Origin: an uncultured Pseudomonadota bacterium
Lineage (GTDB): Bacteria > Pseudomonadota > Gammaproteobacteria > Methylococcales > Methylomonadaceae
Assembly: GCA_903889445.1 (NCBI GenBank)
Contig: CAISXF010000004.1
Coordinates: 1-42,623 of the forward strand
Reading direction: 5' to 3'
Length of the DNA stretch: 42,623 nt
Shown: positions 22,602 to 34,623 of the stretch, one piece after another
Position numbering within the stretch: the stretch's first letter is position 1
Layout of the letters: each line of letters starts with the position of its first letter
The notes under the pieces: model-generated
What the model was told of the DNA's origin: nothing
The model's database searches: none
Seen by the model: only the letters and a program-made list of their open reading frames with translations
Program-made: the position numbers and the translations under genes

Positions 22602-22964
22602 ATGACGAGTATTCTTGCAGTGGATGATTCAGCTTCAATGAGAAAAATGGTGGCGTTTACGTTGAAAACAGCAGGTTATGATGTTGAAGAAGCGGAAGAC
22701 GGTGTCGATGCGTTAGAAAAAGCAAAAGTGCGGACGTTTGATTGCATAGTCACAGATGTCAATATGCCCAATAAAGATGGGATTGAACTCATTCGAGATC
22801 TTCGACAATTGCCCCAATACAAAAATGTGCCAATGCTGATGTTGACCACCGAATCCGGCATGGATAAAAAAAAGCAAGGCAAAGAAGCGGGGGCAACGGG
22901 CTGGATGGTTAAACCGTTTAATCCGGATCAGCTTTTAAAAACGTTATTGAAAGTATTGGGTTAA
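22602..22964 (+). CDS. cheY: CheY-type response regulator
   Basis: This 120-residue single receiver domain has the acidic pair Asp 8-Asp 9, the phosphorylated Asp 52 in IVTDVNMPNKDG, the switch Thr in LMLTTES, and the Lys of MVKPFNP. It has no output domain, so it is a diffusible motor or signalling regulator phosphorylated by CheA. The ATG follows a strong TGGAGAAA. No cheZ is seen in the window, so dephosphorylation must rely on another protein, possibly the free HPt domain encoded next (inference). Confidence 0.93.
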   Translation: MTSILAVDDSASMRKMVAFTLKTAGYDVEEAEDGVDALEKAKVRTFDCIVTDVNMPNKDGIELIRDLRQLPQYKNVPMLMLTTESGMDKKKQGKEAGATGWMVKPFNPDQLLKTLLKVLG

Positions 22965-23011
22965 TTCAATGCGGCACCACTTATTTTATTCAGTTCGGTA
23001 CAGGAAAAACT

Positions 23012-23398
23012 ATGTCTATTGATATGACAGAATTTCACGATGTTTTATTTGAAGAATGTTTGGAAAATTTAGATGTTATGCAAACGGAGCTAAATAGCAT
23101 CGATTTGAATGCGTTTGATAAAGAGAAAATGAACACGATTTATCGTGGCGCACACACGATTAAAGGCGGTTGTGCCATGTTGGAATTCAACATTGTGGCA
23201 GATTATGCGAAAGAAATGGAGCTTCTTTTGGGCGAAATGCGCGATCAAACTAAGCAAATCAATCCGGACAATATCAGTGTAATGTTGGCATCGGTTGAAT
23301 TTATTCGCGCCATGATTAAAAAACTACAAAATAAAGAAGTGCTAGACGACACTGATGCTGCGACACATTGTGCAAAAATGCAAGCCGCTATTGTTTAA
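23012..23398 (+). CDS. Stand-alone CheA P1-like phosphotransfer (HPt) protein
   Basis: This 128-residue protein consists only of a helical HPt domain with the phospho-accepting His 48 in GAHTIKGG. It is clearly a sister of the CheA N-terminus encoded next: both start with MSIDM, have the EEC segment at the same place, and carry His at residue 48. It therefore arose by duplication of the P1 domain. It has no kinase, P2 or coupling domains. It could act as a phosphate sink or relay for CheY, or as a substrate of CheA; this is inference. It ends before a strong hairpin that may stop transcription. Confidence 0.88.
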   Translation: MSIDMTEFHDVLFEECLENLDVMQTELNSIDLNAFDKEKMNTIYRGAHTIKGGCAMLEFNIVADYAKEMELLLGEMRDQTKQINPDNISVMLASVEFIRAMIKKLQNKEVLDDTDAATHCAKMQAAIV

Positions 23399-23453
23399 GT
23401 CCACGCTCACTTGCGTCAAAAATAATCCGTGTAACATGTTAAAAACTTAAAAT

Positions 23454-23489
23454 ATGTCTATGGCGAATTTTGTCGCTTTAGACATTTTT
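23454..23489 (+). terminator. Terminator between the HPt gene and cheA
   Basis: ATGTCTA pairs with TAGACAT and, inside it, GCGA pairs with TCGC, followed by TTTT. It sits directly before a sigma-54 site, separating the cheY-HPt transcript from the cheA transcript. Confidence 0.7.
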
Positions 23490-23505
23490 AGGCACAGGAT
23501 TTGCA
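23490..23505 (+). promoter_or_regulatory. Sigma-54 promoter of the cheA operon
   Basis: The sequence AGGCAC-AGGATT-TGCA has GG and GC 10 bases apart. GGCAC and TTGCA match the sigma-54 -24/-12 consensus closely. It lies 76 bases before the cheA ATG. Confidence 0.8.
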
Positions 23506-23581
23506 CTGAATGAGTGTAGATTTTAGGAAAGGTTGAATTTCAATCTAAATTTAAATAAATACAGGTACACAGGTTAAAGTT

Positions 23582-25651
23582 ATGTCTATTGATATGTCAC
23601 AATTTCATCAAGTTTTCTTTGAAGAATGTTTCGAAGGCTTGGAAGCTATGGAATCTGGGTTGTTGTCGCTCAATATCGGCGACATTGATTCAGAAGTCAT
23701 TAACACCATTTTTAGAGCGGCTCATTCTATTAAAGGCGGCAGCGGCACGTTCGGTTTTACCGTCGTGGCGGAATACACGCACATTATGGAAACATTACTC
23801 GATGAAATGCGTGACGGGCGCAGACAAGTCACTAAAAAGGCGGTCGATGTATTGTTAGGTTCGGTTGATTGTTTACGCGAAATGTTAACGTCAATTCAAA
23901 ATGAAGAAGATGTAAATATGGTCAGCGCGGCGAAACATCAAGCCGCGTTAGAAATAGAATTGAATGGTTCGGCGGGAAGTGGAAGTGCGCCCAAAGCAAT
24001 CGAAGTTCATGAAATTGCGCCAGTCGCTGTGGCAAACGAATCAGAAGAGATTGATGAAGAGCAAGGCTGGAAAATCGCTTTTTGTCCGTACTTGAATTTA
24101 CTCAAAACGGGCAACGATCCCGTGCGTTTATTTCGAGAACTCAATGGATTAGGCGAATTTACAGCGAATGTTAATATCCAAGATGTGCCGCCTTTCGATG
24201 AATTAGATCCTGAGGAATGTAATATCTCTTGGGAATTAAAATTAGTCACCGATGCGAAAGAGGCTGCGATACGCGAAATTTTCAGTTGGGTGGAAGACGA
24301 TTGTGCCTTAGAAATCGCGCCACTATCAAAACCTAAGAAAGTCAAAAAACTAAAAGTGACACCGTCCGCGCCAGCTGTTGACGTTGTTGAAGTAATTTCT
24401 GTCGCCCCTGAAGTTGTTGAATCTACGGCTAAAAAAGCCGCTGCCGTCGTTGAATCGGATCCTTCTAAAAACACGCCGAAAGCCTCCAGTTCGATTCGTG
24501 TTGATACCGATAAAATTGATACGCTGATTAACATGGTAGGCGAAGTCGTGATTACGCAATCGATGCTTGGATTGATTGGCGAAAATTTCACCATGGATAA
24601 AGTCGGGCAACTAAAACGCGGCTTGGCACAGTTGGAACGTCACACCCGCGATTTGCAACAAAGCGTAATGAATATCCGAATGTTGCCAATTAGTTTCGTG
24701 TTTAGTCGTTTCCCGCGCTTGGTGCATGACATTAGCACGCAATTACACAAAAAAATTACGCTGAAATTAGTCGGTGAAAATACCGAAGTCGATAAAGCCG
24801 TCGTCGAATTGATTAACGATCCGTTGGTGCATTTAATTCGTAACAGTTTGGATCACGGAATTGAAATGCCTGCGGAACGTATTGCGGCAGGCAAACCAGA
24901 AATGGGAACGATTGAGCTGAAAGCTTATCACCGTGGCGGTCACATTGTGATTGAAATTGTCGATGATGGACGCGGCATGGATAAAGCGAAATTGTTGGCG
25001 AAAGCGATTGAAAAAGGTTTGGTCGATGAAGCAACGATTATGTCCGACAAACAAATTCTGGAATTGATTTTTATGCCAGGATTTTCAACCGCCGAAAAGT
25101 TGACCGATATTTCAGGGCGTGGCGTGGGAATGGACGTGGTGCGTCGAAACATTCAATCGTTGGGCGGCAATATCGATATTATTTCTGAACTCGGCAAAGG
25201 TTCGACGATTGCGATTCATTTGCCGTTGACGTTGGCAATTTTAGACGGTCAATCGGTCGCAGTGGGCGATGAAACGTATATTGTGCCGCTGGTGTCGATT
25301 ATTGAATCAATCAATATCACCGAAAAAATGCTCAACAAAGTAGCGGGCAAAGGCGAAACGTTCAAATTACGCAGCGAGTATTTACCCATTATCCGAATGC
25401 GCGAAATTTTCAACGTAAAATCCGGCGAAGCAACCAAATCGAATGAAGGTGTCATAGTCGTCGTGGAAGGGCAGGGTGCATTGTGTGGGTTTTTAGTCGA
25501 TGAATTACTCGGTCAACAACAAGTCGTTATCAAATCGCTGGAAGCCAATTATCGGCGCGTCGAAGGCGTATCCGGTGCCACTATTTTGGGCGACGGTTCG
25601 GTCGCATTGATTCTCGATGTCCCTGGTTTAGTTCGCTTGTCCGTGCGCTAA
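23582..25651 (+). CDS. cheA: Chemotaxis histidine kinase CheA
   Basis: This 689-residue protein has the CheA domains in order. P1 has phospho-His 48 in AAHSIKGG (residues 1-115). A second alpha/beta domain contains WKIAFCPYLNLLKTGNDP and ends WVEDDCALEI (about residues 160-245). An Ala/Val-rich linker follows, then the P3 dimer helices starting at IRVDTDKIDTLINMVGEVV. The P4 kinase has an N box (NDPLVHLIRNSLDHG), DDGRGMD, GRGVGMDVV and GKGSTI. The last is a P5 CheW-like domain. It phosphorylates CheY and CheB. It is the first gene behind its own sigma-54 promoter. Confidence 0.95.
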   Translation: MSIDMSQFHQVFFEECFEGLEAMESGLLSLNIGDIDSEVINTIFRAAHSIKGGSGTFGFTVVAEYTHIMETLLDEMRDGRRQVTKKAVDVLLGSVDCLREMLTSIQNEEDVNMVSAAKHQAALEIELNGSAGSGSAPKAIEVHEIAPVAVANESEEIDEEQGWKIAFCPYLNLLKTGNDPVRLFRELNGLGEFTANVNIQDVPPFDELDPEECNISWELKLVTDAKEAAIREIFSWVEDDCALEIAPLSKPKKVKKLKVTPSAPAVDVVEVISVAPEVVESTAKKAAAVVESDPSKNTPKASSSIRVDTDKIDTLINMVGEVVITQSMLGLIGENFTMDKVGQLKRGLAQLERHTRDLQQSVMNIRMLPISFVFSRFPRLVHDISTQLHKKITLKLVGENTEVDKAVVELINDPLVHLIRNSLDHGIEMPAERIAAGKPEMGTIELKAYHRGGHIVIEIVDDGRGMDKAKLLAKAIEKGLVDEATIMSDKQILELIFMPGFSTAEKLTDISGRGVGMDVVRRNIQSLGGNIDIISELGKGSTIAIHLPLTLAILDGQSVAVGDETYIVPLVSIIESINITEKMLNKVAGKGETFKLRSEYLPIIRMREIFNVKSGEATKSNEGVIVVVEGQGALCGFLVDELLGQQQVVIKSLEANYRRVEGVSGATILGDGSVALILDVPGLVRLSVR

Positions 25652-25680
25652 TTTTTCACTTACTCAAACAAAAAACCGTC

Positions 25681-26202
25681 ATGTCACAAGAAAATAAAAC
25701 CCCAGTCGTAAAAGAAACCTTTGTGAAAAATAATTCAGATGTCGCCGTCACCATTCAGTATTTGAGTTTTGTTTTAGGAAAAGAAGAATACGGAGTTGAT
25801 ATTTTACGGGTGCAAGAAATCCGAAGTTGGGAACCCGTTTCGCGTGTGCCAAATGTGCCGCCTTATGAAAAAGGTGTGGTGAATTTGCGTGGCGCGATTG
25901 TGCCAATTATCGATTTACGCGAACGTTTCAGCCTTAGTAAAGTCGAATATACGCCGCTGACGGTGGTCGTTGTTTTACAAACGGGCAACGGTAATCACAC
26001 GCGCATCATGGGCGTGGTGGTAGATTCCGTTTCCGACGTGATTAGCGTTGATAAATCCGAAATCCAAGGCGCACCGGATTTTGGTACAAAAGTCAGCAAT
26101 GAATTTATTAACGGTCTAGTTTCAGTCAATGAACGCATGGTGATGTTGCTGGATGTGGATAAACTATTGACGTTAGAAACAACGGAACAATCCGAAAATT
26201 GA
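25681..26202 (+). CDS. cheW: CheW coupling protein, first copy
   Basis: This 173-residue protein is a single CheW domain: EEYGVDILRVQEIRSWEPVSRVPNVP, then GVVNLRGAIVPIIDLRERF, and the final MVMLLDVDKLL. CheW links receptors to CheA. An N-terminal tail of about 20 residues precedes the domain. It lies 29 bases after cheA and shares its promoter. A second, distinct CheW follows the receptor gene, so the array may have two kinds of coupling subunit. Confidence 0.93.
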   Translation: MSQENKTPVVKETFVKNNSDVAVTIQYLSFVLGKEEYGVDILRVQEIRSWEPVSRVPNVPPYEKGVVNLRGAIVPIIDLRERFSLSKVEYTPLTVVVVLQTGNGNHTRIMGVVVDSVSDVISVDKSEIQGAPDFGTKVSNEFINGLVSVNERMVMLLDVDKLLTLETTEQSEN

Positions 26203-26236
26203 TTATTAGTCGCAAAATTTTGACGAGAACGCTGCA

Positions 26237-28558
26237 ATGAAAATGAATATGCCAGTCACGAATCACGAAGTTGTTATGAAATCCGGAGCGATTTTAGTCA
26301 CTCGCACCGATTTAAAAGGCGTGATTACGTTTGCCAACGATGCTTTTGTAGAAATCAGCGGGTATTCACGCGCCGAGTTGGTTGGCTCGTCACACAACAT
26401 TGTTCGTCATCCCGATATGCCATCCGCTGTTTATGAAGAAATGTGGAATACCATAAAAAAAGAGAAGCCGTGGCACGGGGTGGTGAAAAATCGTACGAAA
26501 GCGGGGGATTTTTATTGGGTGAACGCGAATGCGATGCCGTTATTGGAAAATGGGAGTGTGATTGGCTATATATCCGTACGCCACGCCCCTTCGCGTACTG
26601 ATATTAGTGAAGCAGAACAGTTTTATCGCAAAGTTGCCACTAATGAAGCGGCGTTGCATTCAACCGGTGCCGCCGCTTTTTTTAAGAAAATTAAAGAAAT
26701 TTCACTCGACAAAAAATTGGCATTTGCCTCCACGCTACTTGCCGCACCGAACGTTTTTTTAATGTCTGAATTTTTGAATACAGCGGATTATGGTTTGCTA
26801 TCCGTCACTGTAACGTTGACCGTTTTGGGCGGATTGATGGTGTTCAAAATTTCTCATAACACTAGCGAATTAGTCAATTTATCGATTAACGAATTACGCA
26901 AAGTAAGCCAAAATAAATTTGGGGTACCTCCTAATTTAAGACGTGACGATCAATTTGGTGATTTATTTCGTACCATTTATGGCACCGGCATTAAATTAGG
27001 CAGTGATGTAGGGCGTTTAAATCAAGACGCTGCTGATGCGCTGCGTATTATTAGCGGGTTAGAAAATGTGCAATCTAGCGTGTTAATTACGAATGTCAAT
27101 TTAGACATTATTTTTGTAAATCAGTCGGCGCGAACCTTATTTTCAAGAGTAGAGGCGGATTTTAAAAAACACTTGCCTAATTTTAGAGCGGATACATTGC
27201 TCGGCACAAATATCGATGTATTTCATACAAACCCTGAATACCAACGCCAATTACTCGGTAAGTTGTCTGATTCGACTATGTACGAACTCGAATTGGCGGG
27301 GCATGCGTTTCAAATTATTGCAAAACCAGTGATTTCAGCGGACGGTTCGCGAATTGGTTACATTGCTGAGTGGATGGACAGAACCCAAGAAAATAAAATT
27401 GAACGTGAAATTGAAAATTTAGTAAACTCGATTAAAGTTGGGGATTTGAGAGCGCGAATTCATTTAGAGGGTAAAGAAGGTTTTAATAAATCACTGTCCA
27501 TTAACATCAATGGTTTAACCGATGTGATTGAAAGCGTATTTATGGACATCAATGCCATTATGCAAAAAATGGCAGACGGTGATTTAACCGGCAACATTCA
27601 CACGGATTATCAAGGTGCTTACGCGCAATGCAAAGATAATATCAATAACACGATTACTAAAATTAATCAGTTTATTGAGCAGATTCGCGAAGCCGCTGAG
27701 TTCGTCAATAATGCGTCTCAAGAAATCGCCAGCGGTAATAATAATTTGTCACACCGTGTCGAACAGCAAGCCGCGAGCTTGGAAGAAACGGCGGCAAGTA
27801 TGGAAGAGTTGGCGAGTACCGTAAAATGTAACGCGACCGATATGCAACAAGCTCTCAACGTGGTGAAATCCACCGCGCAATTAGCAGAAAAAGGCGGCGA
27901 TGTGGTGAAATCCGCGATTGTCGCAATGCGAGAAATCAATGAAAGTAGCAATCGCATTGCTGAAATTATCGGCGTGATTGACGAAATTGCGTTTCAAACT
28001 AATTTGTTAGCATTAAATGCGTCGGTAGAAGCGGCGCGGGCGGGTGAACAAGGACGTGGTTTCTCAGTCGTAGCGACTGAAGTCAGGAAGTTAGCACAAC
28101 GCAGCGCGTCGGCAGCCGCTCAAAGTAGCGAAATGATTCAAAATAGTGTGCAAAAAGTACATGCTGGCACGGCATTTGTTAATGAAACAGGGACGGCGTT
28201 AATGGAAATTGTGGGCGGTATTATTAAAGTGGGCGACCTTGTCGGTCATATTGCTGAATCCAGTAACGAACAATCAGCGGGCATTGGTCAAGTTAATCAA
28301 GCTGTCGCGCAATTGGATGAAATTACTCAGCAAAATGCCGCGTTAGCAGAAGAAGCGGCTGCGAATAGTATGGCGATGAGTGAACAATCCGCCAAAATGA
28401 CTCAACTGATTAGTTTCTTTAAATTGAGCAATAAATCGTCATCGTTGGCGGTACGTCAACATGACAGCACATCGAAAAAAGCGGTGGTCGTTAAACCAAA
28501 ATCGGCGGCGGTCGTTCAATCATCCCCCAGTTACAATAGCGATTGGGAAGAGTTTTAA
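26237..28558 (+). CDS. Aer-like PAS chemoreceptor with a CheR/CheB docking tail
   Basis: This is a 773-residue receptor. Residues 1-125 form a PAS domain close to E. coli Aer, including NIVRHPDMP (Arg 57, His 58, Asp 60) and Trp 79, residues tied to FAD in Aer. A hydrophobic stretch at about residues 155-205 gives a membrane hairpin without a large periplasmic domain. A second PAS-like domain follows ([17 protein letters not shown]), then a HAMP-like part and the signalling hairpin ([27 protein letters not shown]). The protein ends in DWEEF, the form of a CheR-binding pentapeptide. The probable role is oxygen/redox sensing through FAD. Confidence 0.92.
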
Positions 28559-28609
28559 TTTGATTACCGATAAAAAACGTCCACTAATAACTCGCAGGAA
28601 ATGACAGCC

Positions 28610-29140
28610 ATGACAACCGATTATATCGCCGCAAACAGCAAACAAATTGAACAGTTTTTAACGTTTGAACTCGCCAACGAAGTGTACGGCGTGGAAATTT
28701 TAAAAGTGCAAGAAATCCGAGGTTGGGAAGCGGTTCGCGTGATACCTAATGCACCATCGTTTATTAAAGGCGTATTGAATTTGCGCGGGTCGGTCATTCC
28801 CATTGTGGATTTGCGCGAACGGTTTTCACTTGAACATTGCGATTACACCCAAAAAACGGTCGTGATTGTGTTGTGCGTCAAGCGTTCGCATGCCGAGACG
28901 TTTGTGATGGGGATTGTTGCCGATGCCGTATCGGATGTACTGGATATTAAATGCAGCGAAATTAAAAAAGCCCCGAATTTTGGCGCACAATTAGATACTC
29001 GTTATATGCGTGGCATGCACGTTTATAAACAAAATATGATTATGCTGTTGGACGTAGATAAACTGCTCAATCCGGATGAACTGGATGATATTGAAACGAT
29101 TTCTGATTCAGTTTCTGTTGACTACGATGAATTGCTGTAA
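28610..29140 (+). CDS. cheW: CheW coupling protein, second copy
   Basis: This protein has 176 residues from the ATG at 28610, or 179 from an ATG at 28601; AGGAA upstream fits the later one better. It has the CheW pattern (NEVYGVEILKVQEIRGWEAVRVIPNAP, GVLNLRGSVIPIVDLRERF, MIMLLDVDKLL) plus an acidic tail. It differs clearly from the first copy, so the two are old duplicates. Its stop overlaps the parA start (TAATG), which suggests their products are made together. Confidence 0.92.
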   Translation: MTTDYIAANSKQIEQFLTFELANEVYGVEILKVQEIRGWEAVRVIPNAPSFIKGVLNLRGSVIPIVDLRERFSLEHCDYTQKTVVIVLCVKRSHAETFVMGIVADAVSDVLDIKCSEIKKAPNFGAQLDTRYMRGMHVYKQNMIMLLDVDKLLNPDELDDIETISDSVSVDYDELL

Positions 29141-29913
29141 TGACCAGATTAGTTGCGATTATTAACCAAAAAGGCGGGGTCGGGAAAACGACCACGACGG
29201 TGAATTTGTGTCACGCGCTGGCAGAATCTGGCAAAAAAGTCACCGTGATTGATTTTGATCCACAAGGACATTTGGCGGTTTCATTTGGTGTCATTTCGCA
29301 CGAAATCAGCGGCATTGATTTGGCATTACTCAAAGAAAAAACCATTGATGAGCAAGTGGTGCCAATACGAAAAAATCTGCAATTGATTCCGGCGGGTTCA
29401 AAACTGAAAGACGTGGAACAAATGAGCAATACCGGTTCACCGCGCGGCGTGTTGTTGCGTGATGCGTTGCGCGGGCAATTACTGAATCAAGATTTTATTT
29501 TTATTGATTGTCCCCCCTCGTCCGGATTATTAGTGGCGAATGCGCTCATTGCTACCCAAGAAGTGTTGGTACCGATGGCGGGTGATTTTCTCGCGTTACA
29601 AGGTTTGTCGCATTTAATGGCAACGATTAAACGTTTTGAAGGCGCGTTAAAAAGACACTATAAATTGTCGGTCGTTATTTCCCGTTATATGTCTACCCGC
29701 CGCATTTCCGGTCAGGTTCTGAACGTTTTACTGTCGCATTTTCCGAATCAAGTGTTGGCGACGGTCATTCGTGAAACTGCGTTATTGGCGGAATGTCCCA
29801 GTTTCGGGCAAACCATTTTGGAATACAGTCCTAAAAGCCGTTCCGCCAGAGATTTCCGTAACCTTGCCAATGATTTTCTTGAAAATAGAGTAATGACAAA
29901 TGACAATAAATAA
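29140..29913 (+). CDS. ParA-family ATPase, likely chemotaxis array positioner
   Basis: This 257-residue protein has the deviant Walker A motif KGGVGKTTTT (Lys 11 and Lys 16), the switch DFDPQGH, and FIDCPPSSG as the second acidic motif, all typical of ParA/Soj/MinD proteins. Family members in chemotaxis operons (ParC in Vibrio, PpfA in Rhodobacter) place receptor arrays at poles or spread cytoplasmic clusters evenly. There is no parB next to it. The STAS protein encoded next, with a basic N-terminal patch, could serve as the ATPase partner (inference). Confidence 0.87.
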   Translation: MTRLVAIINQKGGVGKTTTTVNLCHALAESGKKVTVIDFDPQGHLAVSFGVISHEISGIDLALLKEKTIDEQVVPIRKNLQLIPAGSKLKDVEQMSNTGSPRGVLLRDALRGQLLNQDFIFIDCPPSSGLLVANALIATQEVLVPMAGDFLALQGLSHLMATIKRFEGALKRHYKLSVVISRYMSTRRISGQVLNVLLSHFPNQVLATVIRETALLAECPSFGQTILEYSPKSRSARDFRNLANDFLENRVMTNDNK

Positions 29914-30598
29914 TTTGATTGGTTATGATCCCCTCGCGTGGCTGGATGCTGAGGTGATTGAAGAAATTCCGCCCGTCGTAATTGCCAAAAAAGCGACCAA
30001 ATCCAGAGCAAAAGCGAAAGTTGCACCGGTCGCCATTATCGACAGCGAACCCGCCGCAAAGTTGCAAACAATACCAAAAGCACAGGATGAAATTGAGTCG
30101 GTTATTGATACGCCTGAAAGCGTTGAAATTGACGTGATGATTGATGGCGACGTTGATATTACGATTGATACTGATGAACACGTCGATATTGAGTTTGAAA
30201 TTTCTATTGAATCACCGCAAAATGACAAAGATGTGATGAATCAAATCGTTGACGAAGTGAACGAAATGCTTGTAGAAACCATTGCAGCAGAAGTCATCGA
30301 AAGCGTTCCTAAAGAAATTATCGAACCACTAATTGAGTTAGGTTCTGATGCAACGATGAAGCATCTTGCTACACTTTACGACACGGTAAAACACGTTTTA
30401 GCCGCACATGATAGGTTTGAAATTAACGCTTCAAATGTGACGACCATCGATACGGCGACGTTGCAATTATTAGTATCATTAAAAAAAGATGCACCGCGTT
30501 TAAATAAAACCGTAGACATTATTTATCCGTCACCTCGATTTATTGAATCGGCAAAATTATTGAATTTACTTGATGTGCTTGACGTAACCGACGTTTAA
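29900..30598 (+). CDS. STAS-domain protein with a basic patch and acidic linker
   Basis: This 232-residue protein overlaps parA by 14 bases. It begins with the short motif YDPLAWLD, then a Lys/Arg/Ala patch (AKKATKSRAKAKV, about residues 29-41), then a long Asp/Glu/Ile/Val-rich linker (IDVMIDGDVDITIDTDEHVDI). The C-terminal STAS domain (about residues 145-232) has the key site TTIDTATLQLLVSL. STAS domains bind partners and may be switched by phosphorylation of a Ser/Thr at that site. A basic tail near the N-terminus is a known way to stimulate ParA ATPases; that link is inference. Confidence 0.75.
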   Translation: MTINNLIGYDPLAWLDAEVIEEIPPVVIAKKATKSRAKAKVAPVAIIDSEPAAKLQTIPKAQDEIESVIDTPESVEIDVMIDGDVDITIDTDEHVDIEFEISIESPQNDKDVMNQIVDEVNEMLVETIAAEVIESVPKEIIEPLIELGSDATMKHLATLYDTVKHVLAAHDRFEINASNVTTIDTATLQLLVSLKKDAPRLNKTVDIIYPSPRFIESAKLLNLLDVLDVTDV

Positions 30599-30635
30599 TG
30601 TGGAGTAATCCGCTCAAAGGAGATACGTTATTGTT

Positions 30636-31472
30636 ATGGCAATCGTAGAAAAAGAACGTGAATTTAAATTTACAGCTGAAGATTTCAATATATTGAGAAA
30701 ATTGTCGAATGATTATTCTGGTATTCAAGTGCCGGATGAACGTTTTGACATGTTTTATTCTCGCTTATCCAAGCGTGTTAGAAAGTTAGGCTTATCCAAT
30801 TTTAAAGAATACTGCCACTATCTACGCAACAATTATGAGCAAGAATTTACCCCATTCATTAACGCCATTACGACGAATCTGACTTCTTTTTTTCGTGAAC
30901 AACATCATTTTGATTATTTGCGTGATGTGGTGATTCCTGAATTATTGGTGCGGAATGCAAGTACAAAACAAATTCGTATTTGGTCAGCCGGTTGTTCGAC
31001 AGGTGAAGAGCCGTATTCGGTGGCGATGACCTTGTTAGAAAATGTACCCAGCGATTGGAATGTGAAAATTTTAGCGACCGATTTAGATACGAATGTATTG
31101 CAAACAGCCGTGGATGGCGTTTATACCGAAGACCGTATTACGGATTTGCCGTTAAATGTTTTGAAACGTTGGTTTATGAAAAGTAAATCGTCGTCTGGTC
31201 ACGTTAAAGTTAAAGCGGAATTGCAGGAAATCATTCAATTTGAACAGTTGAATTTAATTCAAGAATGGGCAATGAAAACGCCGTTTGATGTTATTTTTTG
31301 CCGTAACGTACTCATTTATTTTGACCGTGAAACAAAAGCGGCATTGGCAAAACGATATGCTAAACTGCTAGCCAGTAAATCTTGGTTATTTATTGGGCAT
31401 TCAGAATCTCTGAATCAAATTTGTAATGAATTTGAGTTGGTTGCGACTACTAGTTACCGAAAAAATACATAA
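30636..31472 (+). CDS. cheR: Chemoreceptor methyltransferase CheR
   Basis: This 278-residue protein has an N-terminal helical domain (about residues 10-75), then the S-adenosylmethionine-binding domain with IRIWSAGCSTGEEPYSVAM, LATDLDTNVL and FDVIFCRNVLIYFD. CheR methylates glutamates on receptors. A CheR-binding pentapeptide ends the receptor encoded in the same operon. CAAAGGAGATACG lies upstream of the ATG at 30636. The stop is directly followed by the cheD start. Confidence 0.95.
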   Translation: MAIVEKEREFKFTAEDFNILRKLSNDYSGIQVPDERFDMFYSRLSKRVRKLGLSNFKEYCHYLRNNYEQEFTPFINAITTNLTSFFREQHHFDYLRDVVIPELLVRNASTKQIRIWSAGCSTGEEPYSVAMTLLENVPSDWNVKILATDLDTNVLQTAVDGVYTEDRITDLPLNVLKRWFMKSKSSSGHVKVKAELQEIIQFEQLNLIQEWAMKTPFDVIFCRNVLIYFDRETKAALAKRYAKLLASKSWLFIGHSESLNQICNEFELVATTSYRKNT

Positions 31473-32108
31473 ATGAATTCGAATCAAATTAACAAACCTT
31501 CTATTCAAGGCTTTGATCACGTCAATCGTTATCTCGACAGAAATCATGGCATTGTTGCTGCGAAGATATTACCTGGCGAGTATTACGTCACCGCTGAAAA
31601 TGAATTGATTACGACAGTTTTGGGATCGTGCATTTCAGCGTGTGTCAGGGATAAAGAAACGGGCATCGGTGGCATGAATCATTTTATGTTACCGGAAACA
31701 ACGGCTGCTAAAATGAAACAAGGTAGCGATGCCTTGATTGGTAATGCGACCCGCTACGGTAATTATGCGATGGAACATTTAATCAATACTATTTTGTCAA
31801 ACGGCGGTAAACGTAAAAATTTAGAAATCAAAGTGTTTGGCGGTGGAAAAATTATTCCGACATTAGGCGATGTGGGCAAAAGCAATATCAGTTTTATTTT
31901 GGATTACATTGACCAAGAAGGATTGGTGTTACTGTCTCAAGATTTAGGCGATATTTATCCACGCAAAGTGATTTATTTTCCAAAAACGGGTAAGGTTGGG
32001 ATGAAGAAAATTCAAGATTTACACAATGACACGATTGCACAGCGTGATCGTCAATACTCAAGAAAAATTAAAGATGCGCCTGTTGAAGGCGATGTCGAGT
32101 TATTTTAA
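31473..32108 (+). CDS. cheD: Receptor glutamine deamidase CheD
   Basis: This 211-residue protein has the CheD signature: TTVLGSCISACVRD with the catalytic Cys, GGMNHFMLP with the catalytic His, and KVFGGGKII. CheD deamidates receptor glutamines and in some bacteria works with a CheY phosphatase. It follows cheR with no gap and precedes cheB, the standard order in the Che2-type clusters. Confidence 0.93.
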   Translation: MNSNQINKPSIQGFDHVNRYLDRNHGIVAAKILPGEYYVTAENELITTVLGSCISACVRDKETGIGGMNHFMLPETTAAKMKQGSDALIGNATRYGNYAMEHLINTILSNGGKRKNLEIKVFGGGKIIPTLGDVGKSNISFILDYIDQEGLVLLSQDLGDIYPRKVIYFPKTGKVGMKKIQDLHNDTIAQRDRQYSRKIKDAPVEGDVELF

Positions 32109-32159
32109 TTGAACGATTGAAAACTACATGGACAACCTATCTAAATTTTAGAGTCGTAT

Positions 32160-33233
32160 ATGAAAAAAATTCGAGTTTTGATTATTGACGATTCTTTGTT
32201 AATCCGAAAAGTATTAACAGGCGTACTAAATACTGCACCTGATATTGAAGTGATTGGAGCTGCGGAAGATCCGTTAGTAGCTCGCGAAATGATTAAACAG
32301 CTCAATCCCGATGTATTAACATTGGACATTGAGATGCCGCACATGAACGGTCTAACGTTTTTGCGTAATTTAATGCGTTTACGTCCCACGCCCGTTGTGA
32401 TGATTTCAGCATTAACAGAACAGGGCGCGGATGCGACATTAAATGCGATGGCGTTAGGGGCTGTGGATTTTGTGGCGAAACCTAAAGTCAATGTCGAACA
32501 TACGTTAGTGGATTATGCGGAAGAAATTATTGAGAAAGTACGTCTAGCAGCAAACACGAATGTTCAAGTAATGAAAATTCGTGAGGAGCCGCCGCATATT
32601 GAGAAAGAGCTTAATCCGATGCAGCGAATTTTAGCGGCTCGAAAAACGACAGGTTTTAATAAAATTATTGCGTTAGGTTCATCGACGGGCGGCACCGAAG
32701 CCATTAAAGTAATCATGAAAAGTATGCCCGCAGACAGTCCGCCGATTTTAATTACTCAACATTTGCCCGCCGCGTTTAGCGAGTCGTTTGTGAATCACAT
32801 TGATTCGATAACAGAAATGACGGCAAGTATTCCCGTACATGGTCAAGTTGTAGAATGGGGAAATATTTACCTCGCACCTGGCAATAAACACATGGAAGTT
32901 ATTCGTAGTAATAATCAATATGTTATTCAACTACAAAATAGTGAACCTGTGAATCGACATAAACCGTCGGTTGATGTGCTGTTTTATGCTGCGGCGAAAT
33001 GTGCAGGTGAAAATGCGGTATGCGTTTTGCTTACAGGAATGGGAGCAGATGGCGCCGTCGGAATGAAAGCAATGAAAGCCGCCGGTGCAAAAACCATTGT
33101 GCAAGATGAGGCATCGAGTGTGGTGTGGGGAATGCCTGGTGCGGCATTTAAATTAGGCTGTGCCGATTACGTTGTTCCGTTAGATGACATTGCCGCTAAA
33201 ATTTTGACGCTGGTCAAATCTGGATTGCGCTAA
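32160..33233 (+). CDS. cheB: Receptor methylesterase CheB
   Basis: This 357-residue protein has a receiver domain (Asp 10-Asp 11, phospho-Asp 56 in LTLDIEMPHMNG, Lys in VAKPK), a linker, and the esterase domain with the catalytic Ser in LGSSTGG, His in ITQHLP and Asp in LLTGMGADG. Phosphorylation by CheA activates demethylation of receptors. It lies 51 bases after cheD. No separate promoter is evident. Confidence 0.95.
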   Translation: MKKIRVLIIDDSLLIRKVLTGVLNTAPDIEVIGAAEDPLVAREMIKQLNPDVLTLDIEMPHMNGLTFLRNLMRLRPTPVVMISALTEQGADATLNAMALGAVDFVAKPKVNVEHTLVDYAEEIIEKVRLAANTNVQVMKIREEPPHIEKELNPMQRILAARKTTGFNKIIALGSSTGGTEAIKVIMKSMPADSPPILITQHLPAAFSESFVNHIDSITEMTASIPVHGQVVEWGNIYLAPGNKHMEVIRSNNQYVIQLQNSEPVNRHKPSVDVLFYAAAKCAGENAVCVLLTGMGADGAVGMKAMKAAGAKTIVQDEASSVVWGMPGAAFKLGCADYVVPLDDIAAKILTLVKSGLR

Positions 33234-33267
33234 TCAACAGACATTATTTTCAGGCGAAAGAAACATT

Positions 33268-33876
33268 ATGAACAGTCAGACAAAATCACAATTTATTGCG
33301 GTTGCTTCGATTACATCGGAGTTGAGTGCGGTAATGGTTGTAGCGAAAGAGATTTCGTTAGCTGCGGCAAATGCGAAAGCGATTGCGTTTCGAGCGGGTG
33401 ATAAAGCAAAAGGTTTTCAACCGATTACCGATTTTATTAACGAGCTGGCGAAAGAAACGATTGAATTAGTCACCAATATCAACGTGTATGCGTTGTTGTT
33501 ATATCGGTTAACGGTGAATGAATATAGACGCACAGCCGCTTATAACCGTTTTGAGCAAGTCGCGAAATTAGCAGTTGGGGCGCGTTATGCCGATTCGATG
33601 CAAGAACCGATTTCGACTGCAAGAACCATTATGCAAGATTGCCAACGTCAATTTAAACGTGACGTGACGCAATTATTAGGACAGCTCGAAGCGGTGATGC
33701 ACCACGCGCGAGCGGCGCGAGTTATTGCGGCAAACTCTCGAATTGAAGCCTCGCAAGCTGGCGAGTATTTGCAAAGTTTACAAGCGGTTGCCGAAAGCGT
33801 CGATAAAGCCGCGCACACTATTCATGATAATGTGCAACGGTGTCGCATCGCATTATCCATTTATCGCAATAGTTAA
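33268..33876 (+). CDS. Soluble all-helical protein with two receptor-tip-like motifs
   Basis: This 202-residue protein has no signal peptide, membrane segment or known enzyme motif. Two segments resemble the signalling tip of chemoreceptors: one near residues 35-65 (AKAIAFRAGDKAKGFQPITDFINELAKET) and one near residues 150-180 (IAANSRIEASQAGEYLQSL). The receptor encoded upstream has [17 protein letters not shown] at the same place. It looks like a degenerate, membrane-free receptor fragment or adaptor. It lies between cheB and the ODP gene, so I infer that it couples the diiron sensor to CheA or CheW. The motif match is by eye only. Confidence 0.65.
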   Translation: MNSQTKSQFIAVASITSELSAVMVVAKEISLAAANAKAIAFRAGDKAKGFQPITDFINELAKETIELVTNINVYALLLYRLTVNEYRRTAAYNRFEQVAKLAVGARYADSMQEPISTARTIMQDCQRQFKRDVTQLLGQLEAVMHHARAARVIAANSRIEASQAGEYLQSLQAVAESVDKAAHTIHDNVQRCRIALSIYRNS

Positions 33877-33894
33877 AAGAGGAACATTGTTTTT

Positions 33895-34623
33895 ATGAAA
33901 ATGACCAAGATTTACGAAGGAGCGCACCAATGGATTATGTTTGGACGCGACGAAAATAAACCCGACAACATTATTGATAGTAATCAATATATTGTTCGTA
34001 CGGCGAATAAATGTTTATTGCTGGAACCAGGTGGCACAGAATTATTTGCACCCATGATGGCGGCGGTTTTGCATCATGCGCCCGTTGAACAAATTACCGA
34101 TTTATTCGCTTCACACCAAGATCCAGACGTAATTTCGTCGTTGGGTTTGTGGGATCAAGCGTTGTCGAATGCCAAATTGCACGCACCCGCACTTTGGGAA
34201 GGTTATATTCGTCATTTTGGCTGTGAATCCATTCAATATGTACCGATTCCTGATAATGGCGAAACGATTAAAATAGAATCTGTCGAATTACAAATTATTC
34301 CAGCACATTATTTGCATTCACCATGTGGGTTTCATGTTTATGATCCACAAGCGAAAATTTTAATGTGTGGCAGTGTCGGATCCGCGTTTGAAGCTCCTGG
34401 TGCGCCAGTATTTGTAGAACGTTTCGATGTTCACGTTGAAAAAATGCGTTATTACCATCAACGAATGATGCCGTCGAATCAAGCCAAACGCGCGTGGGTT
34501 GATCGAGTTAGAAATTTAGATATTGATATTTTAGCCCCACAACATGGACGCATGTTTAAAGGCGACGACGTGAAACGTTTCTTAGATTGGTTTGATTCGT
34601 TACAAGTTGGAACGGGTATTTAG
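33895..34623 (+). CDS. ODP-like oxygen-sensing metallo-beta-lactamase-fold protein
   Basis: This 242-residue cytosolic protein has the metallo-beta-lactamase fold of flavodiiron proteins without the flavodoxin part. Candidate metal ligands are His 74, Asp 76 and Asp 78 (SHQDPDV), His 138 (IPAHYLHSP) and His 217 (PQHGRMF). The position usually filled by the bridging Asp (SGDIG-type turn) reads CGSVGS, with Ser 160 instead. The C-terminal half (YYHQRMMPSNQAKRAWVDRVRNLDID) matches relatives. The Treponema denticola ODP is a diiron protein that senses oxygen in chemotaxis; this homologue ends the che operon. A terminator follows at 34725. Confidence 0.85.
   Translation: MKMTKIYEGAHQWIMFGRDENKPDNIIDSNQYIVRTANKCLLLEPGGTELFAPMMAAVLHHAPVEQITDLFASHQDPDVISSLGLWDQALSNAKLHAPALWEGYIRHFGCESIQYVPIPDNGETIKIESVELQIIPAHYLHSPCGFHVYDPQAKILMCGSVGSAFEAPGAPVFVERFDVHVEKMRYYHQRMMPSNQAKRAWVDRVRNLDIDILAPQHGRMFKGDDVKRFLDWFDSLQVGTGI

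What the first reader, a model, noticed from the sequence alone, without database searches (positions are those of the whole stretch)
22602..34623. An oxygen-taxis-like che island with ODP, a free HPt, ParA/STAS and a soluble receptor-like protein in one cluster
The core order cheY-cheA-cheW-receptor-cheR-cheD-cheB and the receptor tail DWEEF match the Pseudomonas Che2/Aer2-type pathway. This island adds six parts: a lone P1-like HPt, a second CheW, a ParA ATPase, a STAS protein, a soluble helical protein with receptor-tip-like motifs, and an ODP-like diiron protein. Two oxygen/redox inputs (FAD-PAS in the receptor and ODP in the cytosol) would feed one CheA. I know of no described system with exactly this gene set.
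Basis: partly seen in the sequence, partly recalled or inferred. Interest (0 to 1): 0.85.

Follow-up and report, generated by a model that had tools for sequence, protein, structure and literature searches.

The report
ODP paired with double-tip mini-receptor
In methane-eating bacteria, a chemotaxis gene cluster ends with a two-gene module, a probable metal-based sensor protein and a small soluble protein built from two copies of a chemoreceptor tip, which may feed an internal oxygen or iron signal into swimming control.

Summary
Much of the 'extra' set is not extra: gene order, two CheWs and a STAS protein resemble the published F7 stage-1 cluster (passages of PMC7184735), and ParA is usual in relatives. 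What stands out is the last pair, 'slp202' plus ODP. Both halves of slp202 match the chemoreceptor tip (profile scores 67 and 41; shuffled maxima 24.5 and 27.5). The pair is almost inseparable: all 18 class-wide slp202 matches over 70 bits outside G000 and G008 are followed by ODP, and tree distances agree (r 0.965). It often leaves the che cluster (26 of 80 loci), yet 114 of 115 slp202 genomes encode CheA, and the exception has a broken slp202. Both genes are among the most constrained of the cluster. In the window's genus ODP has serine where solved ODPs have the GD aspartate, so 'diiron' is doubtful here. Best reading: a sensor module coupled by a receptor-tip mimic to the genome's only detected CheA; a new variant of known ODP-receptor coupling, with signalling untested.

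The parts
22602..22964 (+). cheY
   Evidence: Response_reg E=1.2e-28
23012..23398 (+). free HPt, like the CheA P1 domain (AHTIKGG kept)
   Evidence: Hpt E=9.8e-15; matches the first 100 or so positions of CheA models; 3 of 20 relatives' clusters
23582..25651 (+). cheA, the only CheA detected in this 95%-complete genome
25681..26202 (+). cheW1
26237..28558 (+). Aer-type PAS receptor with HAMP and MCP domain, C-terminal DWEEF
   Evidence: aer2_vibrio 454 bits, far below its equivalog cut-off of 1200; 8dik
28601..29140 (+). cheW2
29140..29913 (+). ParA-type ATPase
   Evidence: AAA_31 E=1.3e-42
29900..30598 (+). STAS-domain protein, fast evolving
   Evidence: STAS_2; highest dN/dS in most comparisons
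30636..31472 (+). cheR (named from reading)
   Evidence: place kept in relatives
31473..32108 (+). cheD (named from reading)
   Evidence: place kept in relatives
32160..33233 (+). cheB
33268..33876 (+). slp202: soluble all-helical protein with two tandem chemoreceptor-tip segments
33343..33426 (+). N-terminal tip motif of slp202 (about residues 26-53)
33712..33795 (+). C-terminal tip motif of slp202 (about residues 149-176)
33895..34623 (+). ODP-family protein; HQDPD (74-78), H138, H217 kept, S160 in place of Asp

Best explanation
slp202 and ODP form a two-gene input module for a CheA/CheW array. ODP (metallo-beta-lactamase fold) is the sensor of iron/oxygen state or a related small signal. 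slp202 is a much-reduced soluble receptor: two receptor-tip segments in one chain, so that one molecule could imitate the tip of a receptor dimer, touch CheA/CheW and pass on the state of ODP, without a membrane anchor, a sensor domain or an adaptation region. In the window the module sits at the end of an F7-type cluster that holds the only CheA detected in the genome, beside flagellar genes, so its output would be swimming control together with the genome's 11 receptors. Shown: gene content, similarity of both halves of slp202 to receptor tips, near-absolute pairing with ODP, co-divergence, purifying selection, presence with CheA. Inferred: contact between ODP and slp202, contact of slp202 with CheA/CheW, the ligand, and the behavioural output.
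For: Tip homology: N half prob. 97.4, score 67.3; C half prob. 91.3, score 40.6; shuffle maxima 24.5 and 27.5 in 60 shuffles each; N to C 60 columns without gaps, prob. 77 (no shuffle control for this one); whole profile 94.6%, E 7e-8 over 62 columns. One of seven relatives passes Pfam MCPsignal. slp202-led pairing: 18 of 18 class-wide matches over 70 bits outside G000 and G008, plus L213 at 57 bits; 29 of 30 order-level loci, the miss at a contig end. Tree-distance correlation 0.965 against a permuted maximum of 0.211, 500 permutations, 119 pairs. Pairs in differing che settings: window type, upstream of cheY-cheA in Cycloclasticus L110, and distant pairs beside other cheB genes, several with cheR, cheD or cheW (L144-L150; L208). 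CheA in 114 of 115 slp202 genomes against 89 of the other 186 (lists typed); the exception has a broken slp202. Low dN/dS for both genes. AlphaFold2: all-helical, pLDDT 87-88; the L108 homologue gives helices of 44, 52, 54, 33 residues with breaks at both tips, nearest to single-chain four-helix bundles (best TM 0.57-0.59). Precedent: T. denticola ODP is coupled to a receptor homologue without membrane or sensing module that can modulate CheA (passage in PMC7666581).
Against: 26 of 80 loci and 15 of 19 class-wide pairs are not near che or receptor genes; in Methylomonas L078 the pair sits between queC and a radical-SAM/TRAM gene, and the distant pair L151 has no che gene in view. Most ODPs elsewhere lack slp202: 25 of the 30 best ODP loci of the phylum scan. 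Below 57 bits, short receptor-like frames without ODP exist: L214 (221 codons) and L245 (214 codons). The model of the window protein itself shows one unbroken helix 3-101 through the N tip, so a hairpin there is not established; no Foldseek match reaches E 0.001. Co-occurrence with CheA is confounded by descent. S160 may alter or abolish the canonical metal site in this genus. No interaction or behaviour was tested.
Confidence: 0.55

Rival explanations
1. slp202 is a decoy or cap: it binds CheA/CheW at receptor-tip sites and lowers kinase activity or array growth, and ODP controls its availability; it is not a receptor in the array.
For: Tip residues are kept but split between the halves: of 119 members the C tip has E at position 160 in 116 while the N tip has mostly I at the matching place, and the N tip has R at 42 in 110 while the C tip has Q in 86 and R in 13 (read with its one-residue shift; the role of these positions in receptor trimers is recalled). 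No sensor part; decay in the one CheA-less genome.
Against: Low dN/dS of the whole protein and strict pairing with ODP ask for more than a simple decoy; no data on binding.
Confidence: 0.2
2. The pair works outside chemotaxis; its place at the end of the che operon is only a convenient site of expression.
For: 15 of 19 class-wide pairs are not near che or receptor genes; 26 of 80 loci likewise; housekeeping neighbours in L078.
Against: CheA in 114 of 115 slp202 genomes; several che-linked settings; origin of slp202 from receptor tips; a flagellin gene two genes upstream in L108.
Confidence: 0.15
3. In the window's genus the ODP is no longer a diiron oxygen sensor but a derived sensor, or a structural partner of slp202. 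(This can hold together with the main reading.)
For: S160 in all 16 non-redundant pairs of the genus and in L041, D in the other 103 pairs; K in the frameshifted L056. dN/dS of ODP stays at 0.010-0.042.
Against: The other aligned metal-site residues (HQDPD, H138, H217) are kept; another residue or water could complete the site.
Confidence: 0.35
4. Ordinary F7 stage-1 cluster with two neighbouring genes of no special meaning.
For: Order close to the published stage-1 F7 cluster (PMC7184735).
Against: Pairing, constraint and tip homology as above.
Confidence: 0.08

Closest known systems
ODP with cytoplasmic receptor TDE2496, Treponema denticola (passages of PMC7666581; the 2019 PNAS paper is not held)
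   Same: ODP-family protein encoded with a soluble receptor homologue that has no membrane or sensing part.
   Different: slp202 is only 202 aa, has two tip segments in one chain and scores below the Pfam receptor cut-off; the host is a methanotroph with an F7-type cluster. TDE2496 itself was not compared.
F7 stage-1 chemosensory cluster (Vibrio cholerae, Methylomicrobium alcaliphilum MEALZ_2869-2879; passages of PMC7184735)
   Same: cheY, cheA, two cheW, Aer2-like receptor with a C-terminal pentapeptide, cheR, cheD, cheB, a STAS protein.
   Different: The window lacks the 5' STAS and the downstream McpA-like receptor, STAS and phosphatase (a 400-aa receptor follows cheB in 5 of 20 relatives and a 560-584-aa protein with a receiver match in 4 of them); it adds parA, HPt and slp202-ODP; and no second CheA or CheZ was found in the genome.
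Aer aerotaxis receptor (PDB 8dik)
   Same: PAS domain aligned over residues 16-123, E=5.5e-38.
   Different: Joined to an Aer2-like HAMP-MCP half with a DWEEF tail.
ParC/ParP positioning of arrays in Vibrio (passage of PMC7534058)
   Same: ParA-type ATPase encoded with chemotaxis genes.
   Different: No ParP-like gene noticed among the window's cluster genes (not searched genome-wide); the gene next to parA is a STAS protein; function not tested.

Membership tests
ODP family (PF19583) | match over the curated cut-off | tested here: met
   215 bits against 27.2; solved ODPs 6qrq E=5.7e-58 and 6qnm E=2.4e-50
ODP family (PF19583) | metal-site residues HQDPD, H of AHYLHS, H of PQHG | tested here: met
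   alignment; of 119 pairs 117 have HQDPD, 118 the first H of AHYLH, 118 PQHG. That these are ligands is recalled from flavodiiron proteins
ODP family (PF19583) | aspartate of the GD motif (bridging ligand, recalled) | tested here: not met
   S160 in the window; S in 16 of 119 pairs, all of the window's genus
ODP family (PF19583) | binds two irons and oxygen reversibly | not testable with these tools
   needs purified protein
ODP-coupled cytoplasmic receptor (TDE2496 type) | soluble receptor homologue without sensor, encoded next to ODP | tested here: met
ODP-coupled cytoplasmic receptor (TDE2496 type) | complete MCP signalling domain | tested here: not met
   21.8 bits against cut-off 34.6, residues 12-73 only
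ODP-coupled cytoplasmic receptor (TDE2496 type) | modulates CheA | not testable with these tools
   needs reconstitution
F7 stage-1 cluster | cheY, cheA, two cheW, Aer2-like receptor with pentapeptide, cheR, cheD, cheB in order | tested here: met
   the second cheW lies after the receptor
F7 stage-1 cluster | STAS gene before cheY, and McpA-like receptor, STAS and phosphatase after cheB | tested here: not met
   flgL precedes cheY and slp202-ODP follows cheB
F7 stage-1 cluster | F6 system elsewhere in the genome | tested here: not met
   one CheA, no CheZ; genome 95.4% complete, so absence is likely, not certain
F7 stage-1 cluster | CheA/CheB/CheR phylogenetic class | not tested
   no labelled reference set in hand

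The most novel reading that the evidence does not exclude
slp202 is a single-chain pseudo-dimer of a chemoreceptor tip, a new kind of minimal array component made by tandem duplication, that plugs a diffusible ODP sensor into CheA/CheW arrays without membrane anchor, sensor domain or methylation; in the window's genus it works with an ODP whose GD aspartate was replaced by serine, hence with altered chemistry.
Probability: 0.4. Interest if true: 0.78.

Novelty: new variant of a known kind. Interest (0 to 1): 0.6.

Why it matters
If right, it would be a very small natural receptor-tip unit and a modular way to add an internal metal/oxygen sensor to chemosensory arrays. It would make testable whether one chain carrying two tips can stand in for a receptor dimer, and how methanotrophs, which must find both oxygen and methane, sense their internal state. 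The single-CheA methanotroph also bears on the published statement that organisms with a stage-1 F7 system also had an F6 system.

Tried and rejected
Rejected: chance resemblance of slp202 to receptors. Rejected: reading all six parts as special additions. Thought unlikely: recent gene transfer as the cause of the high identity of slp202 and ODP; their dS (about 0.8-1.3 within the genus, 0.3-0.35 for the nearest genome) is at the low end of the neighbours' range and the lowest in some comparisons, but far from zero. Led nowhere: PHROGs found nothing for slp202, ODP and STAS; of seven slp202 relatives three gave no receptor match in Pfam at E up to 1; promoter and terminator scans were not above shuffles; no Foldseek match at E 0.001.

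Unpaired ODPs (33): 26 score 182-221 bits with the window's ODP profile and form another subfamily (the lowest paired one scores 272). The 7 high scorers: L084 and L102 are cut by the contig start with the end of slp202 visible; L041 has 347 upstream bases without slp202 and is unexplained; L056 has slp202 in two pieces; L105 and L164 are one symbiont contig with a broken slp202; L161 has slp202 in a 406-codon frame that my length filter removed. Filters: slp202 match over more than 150 profile positions in a frame under 330 codons, ODP over 60 bits. Of weaker class-wide matches (a capped list, mostly long receptors) I fetched eight in frames of 214-301 codons: L213 has ODP next; L214 and L245 are short receptor-like frames without ODP; L246, L247, L249 and L250 run into contig ends and L248 is a partial match, none with ODP in view. 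One search printed its columns one residue late; with that shift N35 is in 119 of 119, R42 in 110, G44 in 115, E160 in 116, G165 in 100. The simple gene caller misses genes in GC-rich DNA, so adjacency was taken from six-frame searches.
Full report
What is there. The window (42,623 bases) is a contig of a 2.49-Mb, 121-contig, 95%-complete genome of a Methylococcales methanotroph, judged from the titles of related records (Methylobacter, Methylomonas, Methylovulum, Methylococcaceae MAGs). Thirteen genes run on the + strand from cheY (22602) to ODP (34623), after two genes that read as flgK and flgL (names from reading). Family support: for CheY, HPt, CheA, receptor, CheW2, ParA, STAS, CheB, ODP; for CheW1; CheR and CheD from reading and from their kept places. 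The 202-aa protein has only a sub-threshold MCPsignal match (21.8 bits, cut-off 34.6). Gaps are short (cheB to slp202 34 bases, slp202 to ODP 18 bases), which suggests one transcript; promoter and terminator scans were not above shuffles.

Conservation of the cluster. One search kept the best 80 of 87 ODP relatives. Of these 80 loci, 54 have a cheA, cheW, cheR, cheD or cheB hit in the fetched stretch; of the 54, all have slp202 and ODP, 48 parA and 45 STAS (same filter; the stretches are cut at 10 kb or at contig ends). Of the other 26, 24 have slp202; the two without are L041 and L102, both near a contig start. Twenty longer regions were then fetched from unnamed relatives, chosen because slp202 and CheA lie close together, so their agreement is partly by selection: STAS in 20, parA in 19, an HPt or P1-like gene in 3 (L227, L228, L229; L230 is cut before cheY), a 400-aa receptor after cheB in 5 and, in 4 of these, a 560-584-aa protein with a receiver match; the one read in full (L223) looks like a receiver plus phosphatase by eye. 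Ten of 20 carry an extra gene of 138-140 aa that matches CheB; in the two checked (L215, L217) it is the receiver domain, positions 1-136. So this is an F7 stage-1-like order (PMC7184735, passages) plus parA plus slp202-ODP.

The pair. slp202-led sets: in a class-wide scan of 274 genomes with a 27-row profile, all 18 matches over 70 bits outside G000 and G008 have ODP downstream, as has L213 at 57 bits; spacing is 14-121 bases between profile ends. Among weaker matches in short frames, L214 and L245 have no ODP. Of 30 order-level loci 29 have ODP next and the miss is at a contig end. ODP-led set: 139 pairs, 119 after removing identical ones, and 33 unpaired ODPs, of which 26 belong to a lower-scoring subfamily (182-221 bits against at least 272 for paired ones) and 7 are discussed under Tried and rejected. 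Of the 30 best ODP loci of a phylum scan (398 genomes) only 5 have an slp202-like gene upstream, so the pairing is a property of one ODP branch. Pairwise tree distances of slp202 and ODP correlate at 0.965 (largest of 500 permutations 0.211). Distant pairs (15-19% identity over the slp202 alignment) lie beside other cheB genes, several with cheR, cheD or cheW (L144-L150; L208), but L151 does not. In Cycloclasticus L110 the pair stands upstream of cheY-cheA. Away from che genes: 26 of 80 loci and 15 of 19 class-wide pairs (weak receiver- or PAS-type hits in L204 and L209 not counted as che). In Methylomonas L078 the neighbours are queC and a radical-SAM/TRAM gene; in L108 a flagellin gene is two genes upstream.

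Link with CheA. In 301 genomes of the order, slp202 (E at most 1e-20) is in 115 and CheA (PF02895) in 203; 114 of the 115 have CheA, against 89 of the other 186 (Fisher p=4e-25, not corrected for descent). The exception, G069, holds a contig of the same length as a Bathymodiolus gill-symbiont record (L164 and L105) in which the first part of slp202 is replaced and ODP is frameshifted. This fits a function that needs CheA.

What slp202 is. In a 27-row alignment the only invariant residue is N35, with L31, A33, A36, G44, G49, F50, E160, A161, A175 and I185 at 90% or more; they fall mainly in two segments that look like the receptor tip. The N half against the tip of the window's own receptor gives probability 97.4 and score 67; the C half 91.3 and 41; heptad-preserving shuffles reach at most 24.5 and 27.5 in score (17 and 40 in probability; 60 each); the halves align with each other over 60 columns without a gap at probability 77, a comparison without its own shuffle control. 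One of seven relatives passes the Pfam receptor cut-off (43.5 bits; another reaches 31.5; three show no receptor match). The protein therefore looks like a tandem pair of receptor tips. Adaptation helices seem absent, a point that rests on recalled receptor geometry. AlphaFold2 models are all-helical with good confidence but differ: the window protein has helices 3-101, 109-161, 165-201, the L108 homologue 10-53, 56-107, 114-167, 171-203, broken at both tips, with single-chain four-helix bundles as nearest solved shapes (TM up to 0.59, no E under 0.001). A single-chain mimic of a receptor-dimer tip is thus likely but not established.

The ODP. It aligns to both solved ODPs found, 6qrq and 6qnm, over nearly its whole length. 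HQDPD, H138 and H217 are kept; the aspartate of their GD motif is serine in the window, in all 16 non-redundant pairs of its genus (the window included) and in L041, and aspartate in the other 103 pairs; one frameshifted locus, L056, has lysine. That this residue bridges the metals is recalled from flavodiiron proteins. In comparisons with ten genus loci (nine genomes; L042 and L228 are one) slp202 has dN/dS 0.014-0.026 and ODP 0.010-0.042, the lowest of the cluster except that cheA is below ODP in L044 (0.027 against 0.031); dS is near or above 1 in most comparisons, so the ratios are rough. The changed protein is thus still under strong selection. I call it an ODP-family protein and leave open whether it is a diiron oxygen sensor.

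System level. One CheA, no CheZ match and 11 MCPs were found in the genome. Of the ten other MCPs, nine align to the cluster receptor without a gap over residues 472-729; L236, a 270-codon frame, does so from 537 to 728; L236 and L239 also end in DWEEF. One array type serving the flagellum is the simplest reading. It departs from the published statement that all stage-1 F7 organisms studied also had an F6 system, with the caveats of about 5% missing genome and no class assignment by tree.

Literature. Full-text searches in the open library listed nothing that I recognised as a double-tip protein paired with ODP; I saw listings and, for six papers, passages only (PMC7184735, PMC7666581, PMC9665402, PMC10653840, PMC7534058, PMC9855816). 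Most subscription papers are not held, and the primary ODP paper was not available. A passage of PMC7666581 states that T. denticola ODP is genetically coupled to TDE2496, a receptor homologue without membrane or sensing modules that is capable of modulating CheA.

Verdict. A real, conserved, strongly selected sensory module; a new variant of ODP-receptor coupling with an unusual double-tip partner; mechanism inferred.

Noticed in passing
window genome G000: One CheA, no CheZ match, 11 MCPs of matching length: an F7-type system seems to be the only chemotaxis system, beside flagellar genes, unlike the published stage-1 pattern.
   Followed up: partly
L215:14923-15342 and genes of like length in 10 of 20 relatives (L215-L222, L229, L232): A lone copy of the CheB receiver domain encoded just before the full-length cheB (two checked).
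   Followed up: partly
window:23012-23398: A free HPt like the CheA P1 domain, seen in the window's genus and one other relative (L229); possible phosphate sink or donor.
   Followed up: no
window:29900-30598: The STAS gene has the highest dN/dS of the cluster in most comparisons.
   Followed up: no
L105 / L164: In a Bathymodiolus symbiont genome without detected CheA, slp202 has lost its first part, replaced by transposase-like sequence (label from reading), and ODP is frameshifted.
   Followed up: partly
L118, L121: Members of another ODP subfamily lie between two short genes that look like roadblock-type proteins (label from reading).
   Followed up: no
L041:1-347: ODP of the window's type with no slp202 in the 347 bases upstream; contig start, possibly misassembled.
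   Followed up: partly
L245:4535-5176 and L214:5705-6367: Short receptor-like frames (214 and 221 codons) that match the slp202 profile at 52-53 bits but have no ODP in the fetched stretch.
   Followed up: no
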